Shown here in pieces: positions 1 to 62,052 of a stretch of 64,000 nucleotides of DNA. The notes beneath the pieces are model-generated. The model was given only the letters and a program-made list of their open reading frames with translations. It had not been told where the DNA came from and made no database searches. Position 1 is the stretch's first letter. Every line of letters begins with the position of its first letter. Source of the DNA: Bacteroidales bacterium (GTDB lineage: Bacteria; Bacteroidota; Bacteroidia; Bacteroidales; UBA1556); assembly GCA_027064095.1 (NCBI GenBank), contig JAMOQI010000057.1, forward strand, positions 1-64,000, given 5' to 3'. A program made the position numbers and the translations under genes.

Positions 1-140
1 ATATTTTTCAAATACCCAAATTTGAGTTTTTCTAAATCAGCCTGTTCCGAACTTGTTTCGGGAGGGTTCTCTTGCTTTGCACTCCGCTATTCATTGCTTA
101 TTAATACAAAAGCAAAGCGACTTGTATGAATAATGCGGGG
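1..140 (-). repeat. Dispersed structured intergenic repeat, copy A (truncated by window start)
   Basis: caaatacccaaatttgagtttttctaaat...ctattcattgcttattaatacaaaagcaaagcgacttgtatgaataatg; reverse complement matches copies C and D, same strand as copy B. Confidence 0.75.
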
Positions 141-157
141 TAATTTATAAGAAAATA

Positions 158-10353: not shown

Positions 10354-10611
10354 ATGAATGAATATCTTAGTTTAGCAATAGTTTGTATTTTAGTTTTTTT
10401 TATCAATATACCATTTGGGTATTGGCGTTATGGCGTTAAAAAGTTTAGTTTACAATGGTTTCTTGCTGTTCATCTACCTATTCCATTAGTTGTAGCGCTG
10501 AGGTATGGTTTTCATCTGGGATTTCAGTTATATACATACCCATTTATGATCTTTGCATTCTTCTCGGGACAATGGTTAGGTGCAAGAATTAGAAAGAAAA
10601 AAACGAATTAG
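10354..10611 (+). CDS. Small hypothetical membrane protein
   Basis: 85 aa, two to three hydrophobic helices; downstream of atpDC. Confidence 0.7.
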   Translation: MNEYLSLAIVCILVFFINIPFGYWRYGVKKFSLQWFLAVHLPIPLVVALRYGFHLGFQLYTYPFMIFAFFSGQWLGARIRKKKTN

Positions 10612-10645
10612 AATTGATAGTTTTCTTTCAGAAATATCTAAATTT

Positions 10646-10691
10646 ATTAGTTCTACTTAATAGTCAGGATTATTTGTAAATAATCAGGGTT
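10646..10691 (+). repeat. Solo palindromic end of the dispersed intergenic repeat
   Basis: attagttctacttaatagtcaggattatttgtaaataatcagggtt; matches the hairpin end of copies C and D. Confidence 0.7.
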
Positions 10692-10814
10692 AATCATAAT
10701 AATATTATAATTTTAGTTCAATTGTACTATTATCTGAAAAACAATAAGTAATTATTGCATTTTTTTAAGTACTTTTATGCTTTAATCATTTAATAAATTT
10801 TATTTTATATTACT

Positions 10815-26757: not shown

Positions 26758-26828
26758 GGTCTCTTGGCCGAGTGGCTAGGCACCGGTCTGCAAAACCGTC
26801 TACCCCGGTTCGAATCCGGGAGAGACCT
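26758..26828 (+). tRNA. tRNA-Cys (GCA)
   Basis: GGTCTCT/AGAGACC acceptor stem, anticodon loop CTGCAAA, GGTTCGAATCC T-arm, U discriminator as expected for Cys. Confidence 0.95.
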
Positions 26829-26842
26829 CAATAATTATTACT

Positions 26843-26882: not shown

Positions 26883-26898
26883 GCAGAAATCAAAAACT

Positions 26899-27130
26899 AA
26901 TTCGGATTATTCATAAATAATTCTGACGATTAAGTAAAACTAATAACCTCAGTTCAACGAAAAATTTTACTCGCAGAAAGCTTATATCTAACAGAGGTAA
27001 ATAAATTTGGGTCTAGATTTAAGTTTTTCTAATTGAGTATGTCCCTAAATTATTTTGGAGAGGTTTCCGCATTGCATTTCGCTATTCATTGCTTATTAAT
27101 ACAAAAGCAAAGCGAATTGAATGAATAATG
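26899..27130 (-). repeat. Dispersed structured intergenic repeat, copy B
   Basis: aattcggattattcataaataattctgacgattaagtaaaactaataacctc...cagaaagcttatatct...cgctattcattgcttattaatacaaaagcaaagcgaattgaatgaataatg; reverse complement aligns with copies C and D. Confidence 0.85.
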
Positions 27131-27336
27131 TGCATTAAATTTACAAATTATTGGAAACAAATTGTATAAATTTAATATTTTAATAATACGAAGTTACTAT
27201 CTATCATAGTTTTATATTTTGCATCTATTTTAACAAATTAAGTATGTATTTTTTATTTAAATTTAAATACCGATAAGCAAGCTTAATTTCAATATATTTT
27301 CTACTTTCGCATATACAATATTATATAATTATTACA

Positions 27337-40931: not shown

Positions 40932-43856
40932 ATGAAGAGGTTTTTTTATTTGTTTACAATGGTATTATTGATTGTTTCATTTACAAATTGTAATAAAAAT
41001 AATACAAAGAATGACATCCTCAATTATGTAAATCCTATTATCGGAACAGGAGGTCATGGACACACATATCCCGGAGCCACTTCGCCTTTCGGAATGGTGC
41101 AATTAAGTCCGGATACTCGATTAGGAGGTTGGGATGGATGTTCGGGATATCATTATTCCGATTCGATAATATATGGCTTTTCACATACTCATTTAAGTGG
41201 TACAGGAGTTTCTGACTATGGTGATATATTAATTATGCCTATTCATGGTAATTCTGTATTTGATAAAACTAAATATTCTTCTCATTTTTCTCACAAAAAT
41301 GAAAAAGCTGAAGCCGGTTATTATAAAGTACTTTTAGATAAAGGCAATATTTTGGCAGAACTTACAACCACTACAAGAACAGGAATGCATAGGTACTCTT
41401 TTGATAATGAGGATAGTAATAAGATTGTTCTTGACCTTCAACACAGAGATATAGTTTTAAAATCTTATTTTAAAAAAGTAAACGATTCTACTATTGAAGG
41501 ATATAGAATTTCTAAAGCATGGGCACAACATCAAACTGTTTGTTTTGTGATGGTTTTCTCACATAAAATCCTGAATATTAATATAAAGTCACAGGATAGT
41601 GTGTTCAATTCTGATGAGTTTGTTTTGGATAAAGGAGTGGTTGCATCAATAAATTTTGGAACTATTGAGAACAAACAAATACTGGTAAAAGTTGGAATAT
41701 CTGCTGTAGATATTGATGGTGCGGTGAAAAATTTATCTGTAGAAAATCCTTCGTGGGATTTTGACAGTATTAAAGTGGCTAATCAGAATTACTGGCGTAA
41801 AGAGCTTGGTAAAATTGAAATAGAAGATAAGGATATTGAAAGAAAAACTAATTTTTATACCTCACTATATCATACTATGATAGTTCCTAATATGTTTTCT
41901 GATGTTGATGGCAGATATAGAGGGATGGATTTAAAAATACATAAAACAAAATCGAATCAATATACTGTGTTTTCACTCTGGGATACATACCGAGCCACTC
42001 ATCCATTATATACTATTATTGATACCAAGCGTACTAGAGAATATATACAAACATTTAAAAATCAGTATAATGACGGTGGCACTCTTCCTATTTGGGAACT
42101 TGCTGCAAATTATACCCGATGCATGATTGGATATCATTCCATTCCGGTAATTGTAGATGCTTATATGAAAGGTTTGACAGATATTCAGGCAGATACTCTG
42201 TTGCAAATGATGCTTACAAGTGCTTATGAAAACAATTCGGGGCTTAATGCTTATCGTAAATATGGATATATTTCTAGTGGTGATGCTGCTGAATCTGTTT
42301 CCAAAACATTGGAATACGCTTATGATGATTGGTGTATTGCTACATTAGCTAAAGAATCTGGCAATGATAGTATTTATAAGGAATTTATTAAAAGAGCCCA
42401 AAATTATAAGAATTTATTCGACTCCCAGACTAATTATATGCGACCAAAGATAAATCAGACATGGAAGACTCCTTTTGATCCTTCGGAAGTAGATTTTAAT
42501 TATACTGAGGCTAATTCATGGCAATATAGTTTTTATGTGCCTCAAGATATTTATACTCTTATAAAATTAAATGGAGGAAGGGAAAATTTTGAGAAAAAGC
42601 TTGATAATTTGTTTTCGGCAAATAGCAAAACAATTGGAAGACAGCAGTCTGATATTACCGGTCTGATAGGTCAGTATGCTCATGGAAATGAACCTAGCCA
42701 TCATATGGCATATCTTTATAATTATGTAAACAGGCCTAAAAAAACACAAAAGTATGTTAGTAAAATTGTAAATAATTTTTATAAAAACACTCCCCAAGGG
42801 CTTTGTGGTAACGAGGATTGTGGACAAATGTCGGCATGGTATGTTTTATCTACTATAGGATTTTATCCTGTTAATCCGGCAAATGGAGAATATGTGTTTG
42901 GTAAACCGTTTTTTGATAAAACAATAATTAATCTTGAAAGTGGAAAACGGTTTATTATAGAGAGGACTGGTTCCAAAAAGCCAGATGCCGTTGTAGGAGC
43001 AATATTTTTAAATAATAAAAAATATAGCAAGGCTTATATTGATTATAAGGATATTATGCATGGTGGCAAGTTAGTGTTTGAAATGACTGATAGCAACTCA
43101 ATTGACTTTAATGATGCCGATTTACCAAAATCGATAATTTCTGATTATCTTATTGTCACTACACCTACAATAGTTAAGGGGAAAAGGACATTTAGGGATT
43201 CTACAATAGTTGTGATTGAGAAAATTGATGATGAAAAAATATTTTATTCTATTGATAATGGTGTTAAGTGTGAATATAATTTGCCTTTTTTTATTAAAAG
43301 CAGTTGTCAACTTAGAATGTGGAAGGATAAAAGTCCGGTAGTAATTGCATATTTCTATAAGATACCAGAAGGAATGAAAATTTCGATAAGCAATAAATGG
43401 CCAAATCAGGATTTTCCTTGGCATAAGCAATATAATGCCGGTGGAAATGATGCTTTAATAGATGGCATAAAAGGAACATTGAACTTTAGAACAGGTGACT
43501 GGCAAGGTTATTATTGGGAAGATTTTGAAGCCGTTGTAGATTTAGGTAAGTCAAAAAAAATTCATAGCATTAGTGTAAATTGTTTGCAGGATACTCGTTC
43601 ATGGATTTGGATGCCTGTTGAGGTAAAATATTTGGGGTCAAATGATTCAATTACTTTCAAACCTCTGGGTGTTATTACTAATACCGTTAGTAAATTTGCG
43701 GAGGGACCTCTAATTAAGGATTTCAAAATAGCAATTAATAATAAATCATTCAGATATATAAAAGTTTTTGCTAAGAATCATAATATTTGTCCAAAAGGTC
43801 ACCCCGGCGAAGGGGGAAAAGGATTTATTTTTATGGATGAGATTGAGGTTAAGTAA
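40932..43856 (+). CDS. GH92 family glycoside hydrolase (alpha-mannosidase), lipoprotein
   Basis: VNPIIGTGGHGHTYPGATSPFGMVQLSPDT; GNEDCGQMSAWYVLSTIGFYPVNP; SFTNC lipobox; C-terminal F5/8-like discoidin segment. Confidence 0.95.
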   Translation: MKRFFYLFTMVLLIVSFTNCNKNNTKNDILNYVNPIIGTGGHGHTYPGATSPFGMVQLSPDTRLGGWDGCSGYHYSDSIIYGFSHTHLSGTGVSDYGDILIMPIHGNSVFDKTKYSSHFSHKNEKAEAGYYKVLLDKGNILAELTTTTRTGMHRYSFDNEDSNKIVLDLQHRDIVLKSYFKKVNDSTIEGYRISKAWAQHQTVCFVMVFSHKILNINIKSQDSVFNSDEFVLDKGVVASINFGTIENKQILVKVGISAVDIDGAVKNLSVENPSWDFDSIKVANQNYWRKELGKIEIEDKDIERKTNFYTSLYHTMIVPNMFSDVDGRYRGMDLKIHKTKSNQYTVFSLWDTYRATHPLYTIIDTKRTREYIQTFKNQYNDGGTLPIWELAANYTRCMIGYHSIPVIVDAYMKGLTDIQADTLLQMMLTSAYENNSGLNAYRKYGYISSGDAAESVSKTLEYAYDDWCIATLAKESGNDSIYKEFIKRAQNYKNLFDSQTNYMRPKINQTWKTPFDPSEVDFNYTEANSWQYSFYVPQDIYTLIKLNGGRENFEKKLDNLFSANSKTIGRQQSDITGLIGQYAHGNEPSHHMAYLYNYVNRPKKTQKYVSKIVNNFYKNTPQGLCGNEDCGQMSAWYVLSTIGFYPVNPANGEYVFGKPFFDKTIINLESGKRFIIERTGSKKPDAVVGAIFLNNKKYSKAYIDYKDIMHGGKLVFEMTDSNSIDFNDADLPKSIISDYLIVTTPTIVKGKRTFRDSTIVVIEKIDDEKIFYSIDNGVKCEYNLPFFIKSSCQLRMWKDKSPVVIAYFYKIPEGMKISISNKWPNQDFPWHKQYNAGGNDALIDGIKGTLNFRTGDWQGYYWEDFEAVVDLGKSKKIHSISVNCLQDTRSWIWMPVEVKYLGSNDSITFKPLGVITNTVSKFAEGPLIKDFKIAINNKSFRYIKVFAKNHNICPKGHPGEGGKGFIFMDEIEVK

Positions 43857-43881
43857 TGAATTTAGATAATTATTTTATCAC

Positions 43882-43926
43882 TTTAGTTTTACTTAATTGT
43901 CAAGATTATTTGTGAATAATCCGAGT
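43882..43926 (+). repeat. Solo palindromic end of the dispersed intergenic repeat
   Basis: ttagttttacttaattgtcaagattatttgtgaataatccgagtt, nearly identical to the copy D end. Confidence 0.78.
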
Positions 43927-44006
43927 TAACAAAGTGAGGATACGATTGCTCTTTTTGATAATGCCTGATACAATAAATCAATATTATTTTAAAGCTTCAA
44001 ATTGAT

Positions 44007-57606: not shown

Positions 57607-57632
57607 GATTATATAATTCATAATATAAAATT

Positions 57633-57662
57633 AAAAGCTGCTGATTATCAGTGGCTTTTTTT
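57633..57662 (+). terminator. Rho-independent terminator
   Basis: aaaagctgctga-tta-tcagtggctttttttat stem-loop plus T tract. Confidence 0.85.
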
Positions 57663-57671
57663 ATAAAGCTA

Positions 57672-57705
57672 AATTGTTAGGTTTATTTGTGAATAATCAG
57701 GGTTG
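57672..57705 (+). repeat. Solo palindromic end of the dispersed intergenic repeat (diverged)
   Basis: aattgttaggtttatttgtgaataatcagggttg. Confidence 0.6.
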
Positions 57706-57709
57706 AAGA

Positions 57710-58465: not shown

Positions 58466-58579
58466 AAAAATTATCTTAATCTTAATTAAATTTATAATTT
58501 ATACAAACTAATATTGGCAAAGTAACGAAAAGTATTTGATATTGTTATTTGCTTTTATCACATATTTTTAATCAGCATT

Positions 58580-58822
58580 ATTTATACAAATGCAAAGCGA
58601 ATTGTATCAATAAGCTTTGAGTAGTGGGGGTAATGCAGGAAAATCCTCTAGAAATAAGTTCGGGACAGGTTGATTTAGAAAAACTTAAATTTGGGTATCT
58701 GGACAATATCCAAACTTATAAACTTCGATTAGGTATAAGTTTTTTGTGAGTGAAATCTTATGTCGAACTGAGATTATTAGTTTTACTTAATCGTTAGGAT
58801 TATTAGTGAATAATCCGGGTTT
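58580..58822 (+). repeat. Dispersed structured intergenic repeat, copy C
   Basis: atttatacaaatgcaaagcgaattgtatcaataagc...taatgcaggaaaatcctct...gatttagaaaaacttaaatttgggta...attagttttacttaatcgttaggattattagtgaataatccgggtt. Confidence 0.88.
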
Positions 58823-58829
58823 ACCTGCT

Positions 58830-59303
58830 TTATTCATGATGATAAGGTTCATTTCTAAGAATGCTCATAGCTCTATAGCATTGTTCAAGAAGTAATAATC
58901 TAATCATCTGGTGAGAAAAAGTCATTTTAGAAAGAGCAATTTTTTGTTGGCTTTTAGAATACACATCTTTGCTGAAACCATAAGGACCACCAACGATTAA
59001 ACAAAGAGATTTTATACCACTATTCATTTTATCCTGAAGGTATTTTGCATATTCAATACTTCTAAACTCTTTACCTTTTTCGTCCAAAAGAACCACAAAA
59101 TCTGAATTGTCAATTTTATTAAGAATAAGTTTTCCTTCCTTTTCTTTTTGCTGTTCGATTGTTAATGATTTAGCCTTTTTCAAGGCAGGAATAACTATTA
59201 TCTCTAAAGGTAAATAATTCTTTAGCCTTTTTTCAAATACATTACAAGCTTGATTTAAATAATTTGCCTCTGTTTTGCCAACAAAAATTATTTTTAATTT
59301 CAT
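58830..59303 (-). CDS. rlmH: 23S rRNA (pseudouridine1915-N3)-methyltransferase RlmH
   Basis: LDEKGKEFRSIEYA, LIVGGPYGFSKDV, SKMTFSHQMIRLLLLEQCYRAMSILRNEPYHHE. Confidence 0.97.
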   Translation of the reverse strand: MKLKIIFVGKTEANYLNQACNVFEKRLKNYLPLEIIVIPALKKAKSLTIEQQKEKEGKLILNKIDNSDFVVLLDEKGKEFRSIEYAKYLQDKMNSGIKSLCLIVGGPYGFSKDVYSKSQQKIALSKMTFSHQMIRLLLLEQCYRAMSILRNEPYHHE

Positions 59304-59330
59304 GGTTCAATAGATTAATGAAAACATAGA

Positions 59331-61571
59331 TTACTCTATTCTGTATATATTCTCTATGCCTTCAATTTTCTGGAGTTTTTTAATAATGGTGCTTAATTGC
59401 TCACTGTCTTTTACATAAATCATTACGCTGCCTTCAAAAAGGTCGTTGTTAGTTTCTACGGTAAAAGATCTAATATTTATTCCTAATTCAGAAGAAATAA
59501 TATTTGAAACATCATTTATTAATCCTAGTCTGTCGCTACCATAAAACTTTATTCCAGTAAGGAATTGAAGGTCTCCTTTTTCTCTCCATTTGGCTTTTAT
59601 TATATTACTACCATACTTTGACATAAGTTCTGATGCCTCAGTACAAGTAGTTCTATGGATACTAATACTATTATTTTTTTCTATAAAACCAATAACATCA
59701 TCCCCCGGTATTGGTTTGCAACATTTAGCTAATATGATTTCTGCATGGTCATATTTCTTTGATAATAACAGTCCATTGGGTTTTTTCTTTAACTTTTTTT
59801 GGATAATACTTGAGAGCTCCTCCGTTTTACTTATAGTAGGTTTTTTGCTAAAAGGATTTAGATATTTAATCCAGTTATTCTTTTCCTTATTGTATTTAAT
59901 AAATTTTTCAAGATCTTCTTCTGTAAGCTGTCCTTTCCCCAATCGAAGATAAAGGATTGAAATTTCGGATAAACCTAAATAATTTAACAAATCTTTTTCC
60001 AGTTTGTTATTACATTGTAAATCTTGACTTTCACAATAAATCGATAATATTAATTCTCCTTTTTGAATGTATTTACGCTTATTAGCATTAATAGAATTCT
60101 TAATTGATGACTTTGCTCTGGCAGTATATGCCCAATCCAGCCATTCATCTTTTGGCATCTGTTTACGCGAAGTGATAATCTCAATCTGATCGCCGCTTTT
60201 CAACCTATGATTCAATGGTGTTAACTGGTTGTTGATTTTTGCTCCTATTGCTGTATCTCCGATTTTAGAATGTATTAAGTATGCAAAGTCTATAACAGTA
60301 CTGCCTTTAGGCATGGTCATGATATCCCCTTTAGGGGTAAATACATATATTTCATCTGAAAATAGATTGAGTTTGAATTCATCTAGAAATGCTAGTGCAT
60401 CAGAATCTGGATTTTTAAGTGTGTCTTGTATCTTACTTAACCAAACATCTAAACCTCCAATAGTATCTGTTTTGTCCTTATACTTCCAGTGAGCAGCATA
60501 GCCTTTTTCTGCTATCTCATCCATTCGTTTACTTCTAATCTGAACTTCAATCCATCTTCCGCTTTTACTCATAACCGTAGTGTGAAGAGCCTCATAACCA
60601 TTGGCTTTGGGTACTGAAATCCAATCTCTGAAACGGTCTTGTTTAGGAACGTAAATCTGTGTAATACCTGCATATACTTTCCAGCAATCCAGTTTTTCAT
60701 TTTCAATATCACTATTTAAAATTATTCTAACAGCAAAAATGTCATAAACTTGCTCGAAATTAATCTTCTTAGTTTGCATTTTATTCCAAATAGAACTAAT
60801 TGATTTATTACGGTGAATAATTTTGTATTCAAGTCCACTTTTGTCAAGTTGTTTTTTTATTGGTTGAATAAATTTATGAATAGATTTTTTTAGGTCAACT
60901 TCATTACTCTTTAATTTTTCTGAAATAATTCTATAGGCATCAGGATTTTTATATTTCAACACTAAATCTTCCAACTCGCTTTTAATTTCAAATAAGCCGA
61001 GTCTATTAGCAATTGGTGCATACAATATACTGGTCTCCGAACTTATTTTCATTTGCTTTTCTTTAGGCATAGACTCAAGCGTCCTCATATTGTGTAGCCT
61101 ATCAGCAAGCTTAATTATAATTACTCTTACGTCATCAGCAAGTGTTAGTAGTATCTTTCTAAAATTTTCTGCTTGTAATGATTCACTTTGAGCAAATATG
61201 GAAGATATTTTTGTGAGACCGTCAACTATTTTAGCAACCTTTTTACCAAACATCACTTCAATGTCTTTTAAGGTATAGTCAGTATCTTCAACTACATCAT
61301 GTATGAGCGCACATATAATAGAAGTGGTTTTTAATCCAATATCACGAGTGCAAATAAGTGCAACCTCCAGTGGATGAAAAATATATAATTCACCACTTTT
61401 TCTACGTACACCTTCATGTGCCTGCTGTGCAAAAATAAAGGCCTTTTTTATCTGCTTACGTTTTTCAGGGTCGTCTACTTTACTGTAATGCATTATTTGC
61501 CTAAACTTATTATTTATAAGTCGCTTTTCCTCGGCCTCAGTATTTTCTATTTTAGTAGTCTCTGTTGTCAA
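59331..61571 (-). CDS. Bifunctional (p)ppGpp synthetase/hydrolase, RelA/SpoT family
   Basis: HD motif ICALIHDVVEDT, synthetase KANGYEALHTTV, TGS VFTPKGDIMTMPKGSTVIDFAY, C-terminal ACT. Confidence 0.96.
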   Translation of the reverse strand: MTTETTKIENTEAEEKRLINNKFRQIMHYSKVDDPEKRKQIKKAFIFAQQAHEGVRRKSGELYIFHPLEVALICTRDIGLKTTSIICALIHDVVEDTDYTLKDIEVMFGKKVAKIVDGLTKISSIFAQSESLQAENFRKILLTLADDVRVIIIKLADRLHNMRTLESMPKEKQMKISSETSILYAPIANRLGLFEIKSELEDLVLKYKNPDAYRIISEKLKSNEVDLKKSIHKFIQPIKKQLDKSGLEYKIIHRNKSISSIWNKMQTKKINFEQVYDIFAVRIILNSDIENEKLDCWKVYAGITQIYVPKQDRFRDWISVPKANGYEALHTTVMSKSGRWIEVQIRSKRMDEIAEKGYAAHWKYKDKTDTIGGLDVWLSKIQDTLKNPDSDALAFLDEFKLNLFSDEIYVFTPKGDIMTMPKGSTVIDFAYLIHSKIGDTAIGAKINNQLTPLNHRLKSGDQIEIITSRKQMPKDEWLDWAYTARAKSSIKNSINANKRKYIQKGELILSIYCESQDLQCNNKLEKDLLNYLGLSEISILYLRLGKGQLTEEDLEKFIKYNKEKNNWIKYLNPFSKKPTISKTEELSSIIQKKLKKKPNGLLLSKKYDHAEIILAKCCKPIPGDDVIGFIEKNNSISIHRTTCTEASELMSKYGSNIIKAKWREKGDLQFLTGIKFYGSDRLGLINDVSNIISSELGINIRSFTVETNNDLFEGSVMIYVKDSEQLSTIIKKLQKIEGIENIYRIE

Positions 61572-61680
61572 TTATAATAATATTTATACGTGTTTTAGAT
61601 TTTAAAAGCGTAAAGATATGGAAAATATCTTCAATTTTGATATCATAGAAAATAATTAAATCATAAGAATATTAACCGGT

Positions 61681-61880
61681 ATTATTCATGCAAAAGCAAA
61701 GCGAATTGTTTGAATAAGCAATGAATAACGGAGGGCAATGCAGGAAAACTCTGATATAGGAAAACTTAAATTTGGATAATTGAAAAATATTTAATTTTAT
61801 TAACTTCATTAGATATAAGCTTTCTGTGGAGGTTATTAGTTTTACTTAATCGTCAGGATTATTTGTGAATAATCCGAGTT
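61681..61880 (+). repeat. Dispersed structured intergenic repeat, copy D
   Basis: attattcatgcaaaagcaaagcgaattgtttgaataagcaatgaataacggagggcaatgcaggaaaactct...ggaaaacttaaatttgga...agatataagctttctgtggaggttattagttttacttaatcgtcaggattatttgtgaataatccgagtt. Confidence 0.9.
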
Positions 61881-62052
61881 GATATTTTTGATGCAGAAGG
61901 ATAGAGCTTAATTAAAGCCATTATTAAATTGTTATAAAAATATATTTAATGTAAAAAAACGTATGAAATTAATAATAATTGATTATTTTGTTACAAATAA
62001 GCATTTAAGCGTCAATTAATAAATAACACTGTCAATATATTGAATTTTTGTT

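What the first reader, a model, noticed from the sequence alone, without database searches (positions are those of the whole stretch)
58580..61880. Dispersed structured intergenic repeat family (copies A-D plus three solo ends)
Four long, diverged but alignable copies lie only between genes: 1-140 (-), 26899-27130 (-), 58580-58822 (+), 61681-61880 (+). Shared blocks in order are AGCAAAGCGAATTG, GGAGGGCAATGCAGGAAAA, GAAAAACTTAAATTTGG, AGATATAAGCTTTCTG, TTAGTTTTACTTAATCGTCAGGATTATTTGTGAATAATCCGAGTT. None encodes a protein. Conservation of both ends around a more variable middle resembles a MITE or a mobile structured-RNA/REP-type element. No transposase is in the window, so the mobilising enzyme, if any, is elsewhere.
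Basis: seen in the sequence. Interest (0 to 1): 0.72.

Follow-up and report, generated by a model that had tools for sequence, protein, structure and literature searches.

The report
Structured MITE family moved by IS1380
The repeats are roughly 100 decaying copies of a small non-coding jumping element that most likely borrowed the transposase of IS1380-family insertion sequences and lands at TTAA sites; it is an ordinary kind of genomic parasite, but its multi-hairpin architecture is kept by matching base changes across many bacterial genera.

Summary
The window holds three full copies, one copy cut by the contig end, and three degraded right ends. The whole 2.13 Mb draft genome gives 102 covariance-model matches, a few of them double-counted. 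An occupied and an empty version of one site in genome G075 show insertion with a 4-bp target duplication (TTAG), and four further concordant non-TTAA duplications support this. No IS1380 gene is found in the window's own 86%-complete assembly, and its copies are old. The orthologous rlmH-g57710 spacer in congeners lacks copy C.

The unusual part is a near-constant core of about 171 nt made of several hairpins. It recurs in about 19 genera of the order with compensatory base changes. G-U and A-C mismatches are equally common, and resident copies decay without compensation, which argues against a host RNA function. Inverted hairpin loops point to replication template switching as a cause of the covariation. 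This is a new family of a known kind; trans-mobilisation was not tested experimentally.

The parts
61672..61882 (+). Copy D: MITE of 203 bp (61676-61878), flanked by TTAA (61672-61675) and its decayed partner TTGA (61879-61882); upstream of relA; has lost hairpin module ii and part of module iv
   Evidence: CM match E 5.8e-22; sequence; alignment with other copies
58568..58823 (+). Copy C: MITE (58572-58819), flanked by TTAA and decayed TTTA; flank ends 6 bp before the rlmH stop codon; absent from the orthologous spacer in congeners G001 and G006
   Evidence: CM match E 7.1e-14; synteny rlmH-g57710 in G001 and G006; spacer comparison
26897..27138 (-). Copy B: MITE (26901-27134), flanked by TTAA and TTAG; loop of the first hairpin inverted
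   Evidence: CM match E 4.8e-9; sequence
1..143 (-). Copy A: left part of a MITE, cut by the start of the contig; left flank TTAC; first hairpin loop inverted
   Evidence: Sequence; CM match 27-143 E 4.2e-6; window starts at contig base 1
10554..10693 (+). Degraded copy: right part with terminal hairpin and CAGGGTTAA end recognisable
   Evidence: CM match E 2.1e-6; direct repeat family D1
43787..43929 (+). Degraded copy: right end (43883-43929) clear, left part eroded or lost
   Evidence: CM match E 8.5e-5; family D1
57609..57706 (+). Most degraded copy: only the right end is recognisable
   Evidence: CM match E 0.017; family D1

Best explanation
The repeats are a family of non-autonomous DNA transposons (MITEs). 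They have no gene of their own and were moved by transposases of the IS1380 family, the bacterial relatives of piggyBac, which recognise their ends (CCYGNATTATTCA...TGAATWATNCGGG). They insert at TTAA, less often CTAA, TTAG or TTAC, and duplicate those 4 bp. Shown: shared ends with IS1380 elements, the target duplication, an occupied and an empty site, the genome-wide copy number, and old decaying copies in the window's genome. Inferred: mobilisation in trans, and loss of the active IS1380 from this lineage or its absence from the draft. Also inferred: the matched arms of the internal hairpins are kept by replication template switching within an architecture inherited by active lineages, rather than by a host RNA function.
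For: Genome-wide copies. TTAA-bounded elements in other families of the order. IS1380 transposase (NF033539, E 2.5e-92) with matching ends: L122 has TTAA|CCCGGATTATTCATA...tnp...TATGAATAATCCGGG|TTAA. L120, L121, L124, L125 and L133 also carry both ends, each end reached in at most 6 of 300 resampled sequences; L118 carries one end with 0 of 300. Empty site L116 against filled L054, with duplication TTAG. Concordant duplications CTAA/CTAA (L099, L105), TTAG/TTAG (L100, L054), TTAC/TTAC (L171). Two elements in tandem sharing one TTAA (L112). Copy C absent from the orthologous spacer in G001 and G006. PMC10045372 states that IS1380 and piggyBac share 4-bp duplications and 5'-CC..GG-3' termini.
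Against: No IS1380 gene was found in the window's own assembly, nor in G059, G283 or G350, whose copies are nearly identical and so recent. Co-occurrence of MITE and IS1380 over 393 genomes is only 3, against about 1 expected. Draft genomes often miss IS genes, but this was not shown here. The IS and the MITE share only the outer 15-25 bp.
Confidence: 0.88

Rival explanations
1. A functional structured RNA, either host-encoded or carried by the element: copies are transcribed and the hairpins act as RNA, for example as terminators, stabilisers or a retro-element RNA.
For: Strong folding of recent copies (z -5.7 and -7.6). 91% of cells paired and 50 double-change cells against 20.6 in shuffles. 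Near-constant core length over genera.
Against: G-U and A-C mismatches are equally common: 27 against 28 pairs show them across genera, and 73 against 62 single changes within the window genome. Double changes in the window genome are near the independent expectation (27 against 23.2). No bias in gene context was seen (8 convergent, 7 divergent, 11 tandem). Copy D folds little better than shuffles (z -1.6). No Rfam match. 4-bp target duplications indicate DNA transposition.
Confidence: 0.06
2. A REP/BIME or PATE-type element moved by a Y1 (HUH) transposase as folded single-stranded DNA.
For: Subterminal hairpins at both ends and the conserved single-strand architecture.
Against: Direct 4-bp target duplications that change together on both sides, which Y1 transposition does not make (general knowledge). 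The same ends occur on a DDE-type IS. Y1 genes themselves were not searched for.
Confidence: 0.03
3. A MITE, but moved by a different transposase family that happens to share TTAA targets and similar ends.
For: IS1380 is missing from several drafts with fresh copies, G350, G059 and G283, and overlap with MITE-bearing genomes is weak.
Against: The ends of six IS1380 elements match at 12-13 of 13 motif positions on both sides with TTAA or TTAG next to them. No other family was seen with such ends, although other families were not searched.
Confidence: 0.08

Closest known systems
IS1380 family insertion sequences (NCBIfam NF033539, Pfam PF13701)
   Same: Same terminal sequence, 5'-CC..GG-3' termini, 4-bp TTAA-type target duplication; present in the same order and in some of the same genomes
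   Different: The element has no transposase gene, is about 170-255 bp, and its interior is unrelated to the IS
piggyBac transposons and their MITEs (eukaryotes)
   Same: TTAA target, CC-start ends; rare variant duplications CTAA and TTAG also reported there (PMC10813416)
   Different: Eukaryotic; only distantly related transposase (PMC10045372)
BrickBuilt, MITE239 and MITE464/PgRS elements of Porphyromonas gingivalis
   Same: Intergenic non-coding MITEs of Bacteroidales with IS-like ends
   Different: BrickBuilt ends (CCGAAAGGTCTC) resemble ISPg1/ISPg9 and it is built of 23-nt tandem repeats (PMC4596501); not the same ends; MITE239 sequence itself was not compared
Structured MITE-like repeats such as Correia/NEMIS, RUP, ERIC and BOX (from general knowledge)
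   Same: Short, intergenic, many copies, fold into hairpins, borrowed transposase in some cases
   Different: Different hosts, ends and targets (IS630-type TA for RUP); no sequence relation tested here

Membership tests
[quoted passage not shown]
   About 171-257 bp; 102 CM matches in 2.13 Mb; 0 of 30 copies inside ORFs
[quoted passage not shown]
   CCYGNATTATTCA at the left, reverse complement at the right; 186 ends against 35 control
[quoted passage not shown]
   L054 filled and L116 empty, TTAG duplicated; concordant CTAA, TTAG, TTAC duplications
IS1380-mobilised element | Ends match those of an IS1380-family IS, with 4-bp duplication and CC..GG termini | tested here: met
   L120, L121, L122, L124, L125, L133; termini rule from PMC10045372
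IS1380-mobilised element | An IS1380 transposase gene in the same genome | tested here: inconclusive
   Present in G286 and G271 (a distant one also in G150); not found in G000, G059, G283, G350 drafts; drafts incomplete
IS1380-mobilised element | Transposition in trans by that enzyme | not testable with these tools
   Needs an experiment
Structured RNA family | Match to a known RNA family | tested here: not met
   Rfam at gathering scores finds only tRNA-Cys in the window
Structured RNA family | Strand-specific constraint on pairing (excess of G-U over A-C) | tested here: not met
   27 against 28 pairs; 73 against 62 changes within G000
REP/BIME or PATE (Y1 transposase) | No target-site duplication | tested here: not met
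   4-bp duplication shown at L054/L116
REP/BIME or PATE (Y1 transposase) | Y1/RAYT gene in the genome | not tested
   PF01797 was not searched

The most novel reading that the evidence does not exclude
The multi-hairpin core, including a possible pseudoknot between the left end and GGGGT/ACCCC, is itself required for mobility: a DDE-mobilised element that is excised or recognised in a folded single-stranded form, so selection on active lineages keeps the fold while resident copies decay freely.
Probability: 0.2. Interest if true: 0.65.

Novelty: new member of a known kind. Interest (0 to 1): 0.4.

Why it matters
It gives a large MITE family of Bacteroidales, for which I found no description, an anatomy, a target rule and a likely enzyme, and it explains some of the intergenic repeats at which assemblies of these genomes break. 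The matched hairpin arms and flipped loops also provide a natural case in which covariation that looks like RNA structure may come from replication template switching, a useful warning for covariation-based RNA discovery.

Tried and rejected
Plasmid, phage and IMG/VR searches found nothing, so the family is chromosomal in the material held. Pairing the listed end motifs to find an autonomous copy in the window's own genome gave none, though the list was truncated. Host RNA function was tested by mismatch symmetry and by compensation within the genome and rejected. A promoter or terminator role was tested by neighbouring gene orientation; no bias was found. An inversion between copies B and D as the cause of the different tRNA-Cys position was considered; by hand, the orientations do not fit. 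Weak PF13701 hits in G075 and G233 (L116, L117) showed no such ends in a motif scan. Literature searches found no description of an IS1380-type MITE in this order, but subscription papers and ISfinder were not searchable.

Full report
1. The observation. The repeats are present at the stated places. The contig begins inside copy A, so that copy is incomplete by assembly. A covariance model built from copies in three bacterial families finds all four copies and the three fragments in the window, with E-values from 5.8e-22 to 0.017. In the whole assembly (2.13 Mb, 85.6% complete) blastn of copy D finds 56 matches. The model finds 102 matches at E<=0.01, a few of them the same place on both strands. 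The end motif TTAAYYNGNATTATTNA occurs 186 times with at most one mismatch, against 35 for the reversed control. None of 30 copies read lies inside an ORF.

2. Anatomy. Read from 30 copies of the window's genome, a full copy is TTAA | CCCGCATTATTCATACAA...TTGTATGAATAA...GCGGGGTGCAATGCGGGAAAACC [module ii: TTCCCGAAACAAGTTCGGGACAGGCT] GATTTAGAAAAACTCAAATTTGGGTATTTGAAAAATATCCAAATTTATT [module iv: AACCTCAG...CTGAGGTT] ATTAGTTTTACTTAATCGTCAGGATTATTTGTGAATAATCCGGG | TTAA. Module ii is missing from some copies and module iv from many; both are absent from most other genomes, and without them the core is about 171 nt. In copies A and B, and in L015, the loop of the first hairpin is inverted, and also once in another genus (L092). 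The apical loop of the central hairpin is inverted in L013, L018, L024 and L030.

3. Distribution. Blastn over 99 relatives found strong matches in two other families of the order, G059 and G075. The covariance model found 25 of 393 genomes of the order (19 of 206 genera), up to E 1e-36, most distant full-length copies being 169-174 nt long. In a separate phylum-wide draw of 395 genomes only the window's own genome matched. No plasmid, phage or IMG/VR match was found.

4. It is a DNA transposon. Most copies are bounded by TTAA on both sides, and in several copies where the bases differ they differ together: CTAA/CTAA in L099 and L105, TTAG/TTAG in L100 and L054, TTAC/TTAC in L171. One element is seen both filled and empty in the same genome, G075: L116 reads ...ACCTTAAACGGATTAG|GTCTGCTCTCC..., and L054 reads the same flanks with 205 nt inserted plus a second TTAG. 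In L112 two elements stand in tandem sharing one TTAA. In the window itself, copy C lies in the spacer between rlmH and gene 57710. That gene order is kept in congeners G001 and G006, and their spacers lack the element; G001 shares the stretch TTGGCAAAGTAACGAAAAGTAT next to the site.

5. The enzyme. Guided by the CC..GG ends and TTAA target, PF13701 was searched in twelve element-bearing genomes and the transposase of G286 in 393 genomes of the order. The proteins belong to NCBIfam NF033539, IS1380 family. The IS copies have the same ends as the repeats. L122 reads TTAA CCCGGATTATTCATA...tnp...TATGAATAATCCGGG TTAA. L120, L121, L124, L125 and L133 have both ends close to the gene, each end reached in at most 6 of 300 resampled sequences; L118 has one end. 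[quoted passage not shown] The weak point is co-occurrence. The window's genome, G059, G283 and G350 show no IS1380 gene, and only three genomes (G150, G271, G286) carry both, about one being expected by chance from 25 and 15 of 393. In the window's genome this fits old, decaying copies (13% divergence from consensus outside stems). In G350 and G059 the copies are nearly identical, so the enzyme must be, or recently have been, there; missing IS genes in drafts is the likely but unproven reason.

6. The conserved hairpins. On a structure drawn from the three families, 91% of cells pair, 14 pairs change on both sides and 50 cells carry double changes, against 20.6 in shuffles (0 of 500); sliding the partner by one column drops pairing to 44-47%. 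Examples are CCCGCATT/AATGCGGG, CCCGCTTT/AAAGCGGG and CCTGAATT/AATTCAGG, and the central stem GAAAAACT/AGTTTTAC, GTAATACC/GGTATTAC and GAATAACT/AGTTATTC. Distant types (L097, L099, L103, L104) keep the architecture with largely different sequence. In these types the element reads as two TTAA-bounded palindromic units in tandem (TTAA-CCTGAATTATTCA...ATAATTCAGG-TTAA-CCCCGA...TCGGG-TTAA), which suggests an origin as a fused pair; this is inference. The pseudoknot GGGGT/ACCCC is supported less well (79% of cells paired).

7. What the hairpins mean. Three tests speak against an RNA product under selection. Across genera, G-U and A-C mismatches are seen at 27 and 28 pairs. Within the window's genome they are 73 and 62, and double changes (27) are close to the independent expectation (23.2), so resident copies are not kept in shape. 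Neighbouring genes show no preferred orientation (8 convergent, 7 divergent, 11 tandem). Another cause fits: template switching between hairpin arms is known to homogenise the arms and invert the spacer (PMC8604942) and to create compensatory-looking changes (PMC8794818), and inverted spacers are what several copies show. I therefore think the fold is inherited with the mobile lineage and its arms are kept matched mainly by this mutational process. A direct role of the fold in transposition is not excluded and is stated as the novel case.

8. Verdict. A new MITE family of a known kind, most likely mobilised by IS1380-family transposases. The RNA part of its reading is not supported, although the structure is real.

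Noticed in passing
L054 and L116 (G075): The same stretch occurs twice in G075, once with and once without the element; the empty copy was brought in by chance through a weak PF13701 hit.
   Followed up: yes
window 58650-58680 and the homologous part of other copies; G019, G022, G072: Module ii (CTTCCCGAAACAAGTTCGGGACAG) matches sequences in other families of the order exactly or nearly (three 25-nt exact matches in G019); it looks like a separate palindromic repeat that entered the MITE. Several G075 copies carry a similar hairpin twice.
   Followed up: no
window 26897-27138, 1-143; L015, L092, L013, L018, L024, L030: Hairpin loops occur in both orientations with the arms unchanged, in two different hairpins and two genera: spacer inversions that suggest template switching.
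   Followed up: partly
window 26758-26829 and L139 upstream of relA: In congener G001 a tRNA-Cys-like sequence lies about 450 bp upstream of relA; in the window tRNA-Cys is 34 kb away beside copy B, while copy D sits upstream of relA. A rearrangement near two MITE copies; a simple inversion between B and D does not fit the orientations.
   Followed up: partly
L097, L099, L100, L103, L105 (G123, G211, G259, G085, G335): A second type of the element in which the internal arm extends over the target bases (CTAACCTGCATTATT/AATAATGCAGGTTAG in L099, CTGACC/GGTCAG in L103), as if arm homogenisation had run into the flanking duplication.
   Followed up: no
L120/L114 (G271): The IS1380 of G271 has a stop codon within its transposase frame, so it is probably inactive; its left end carries the same subterminal hairpin as the MITE right end.
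   Followed up: no
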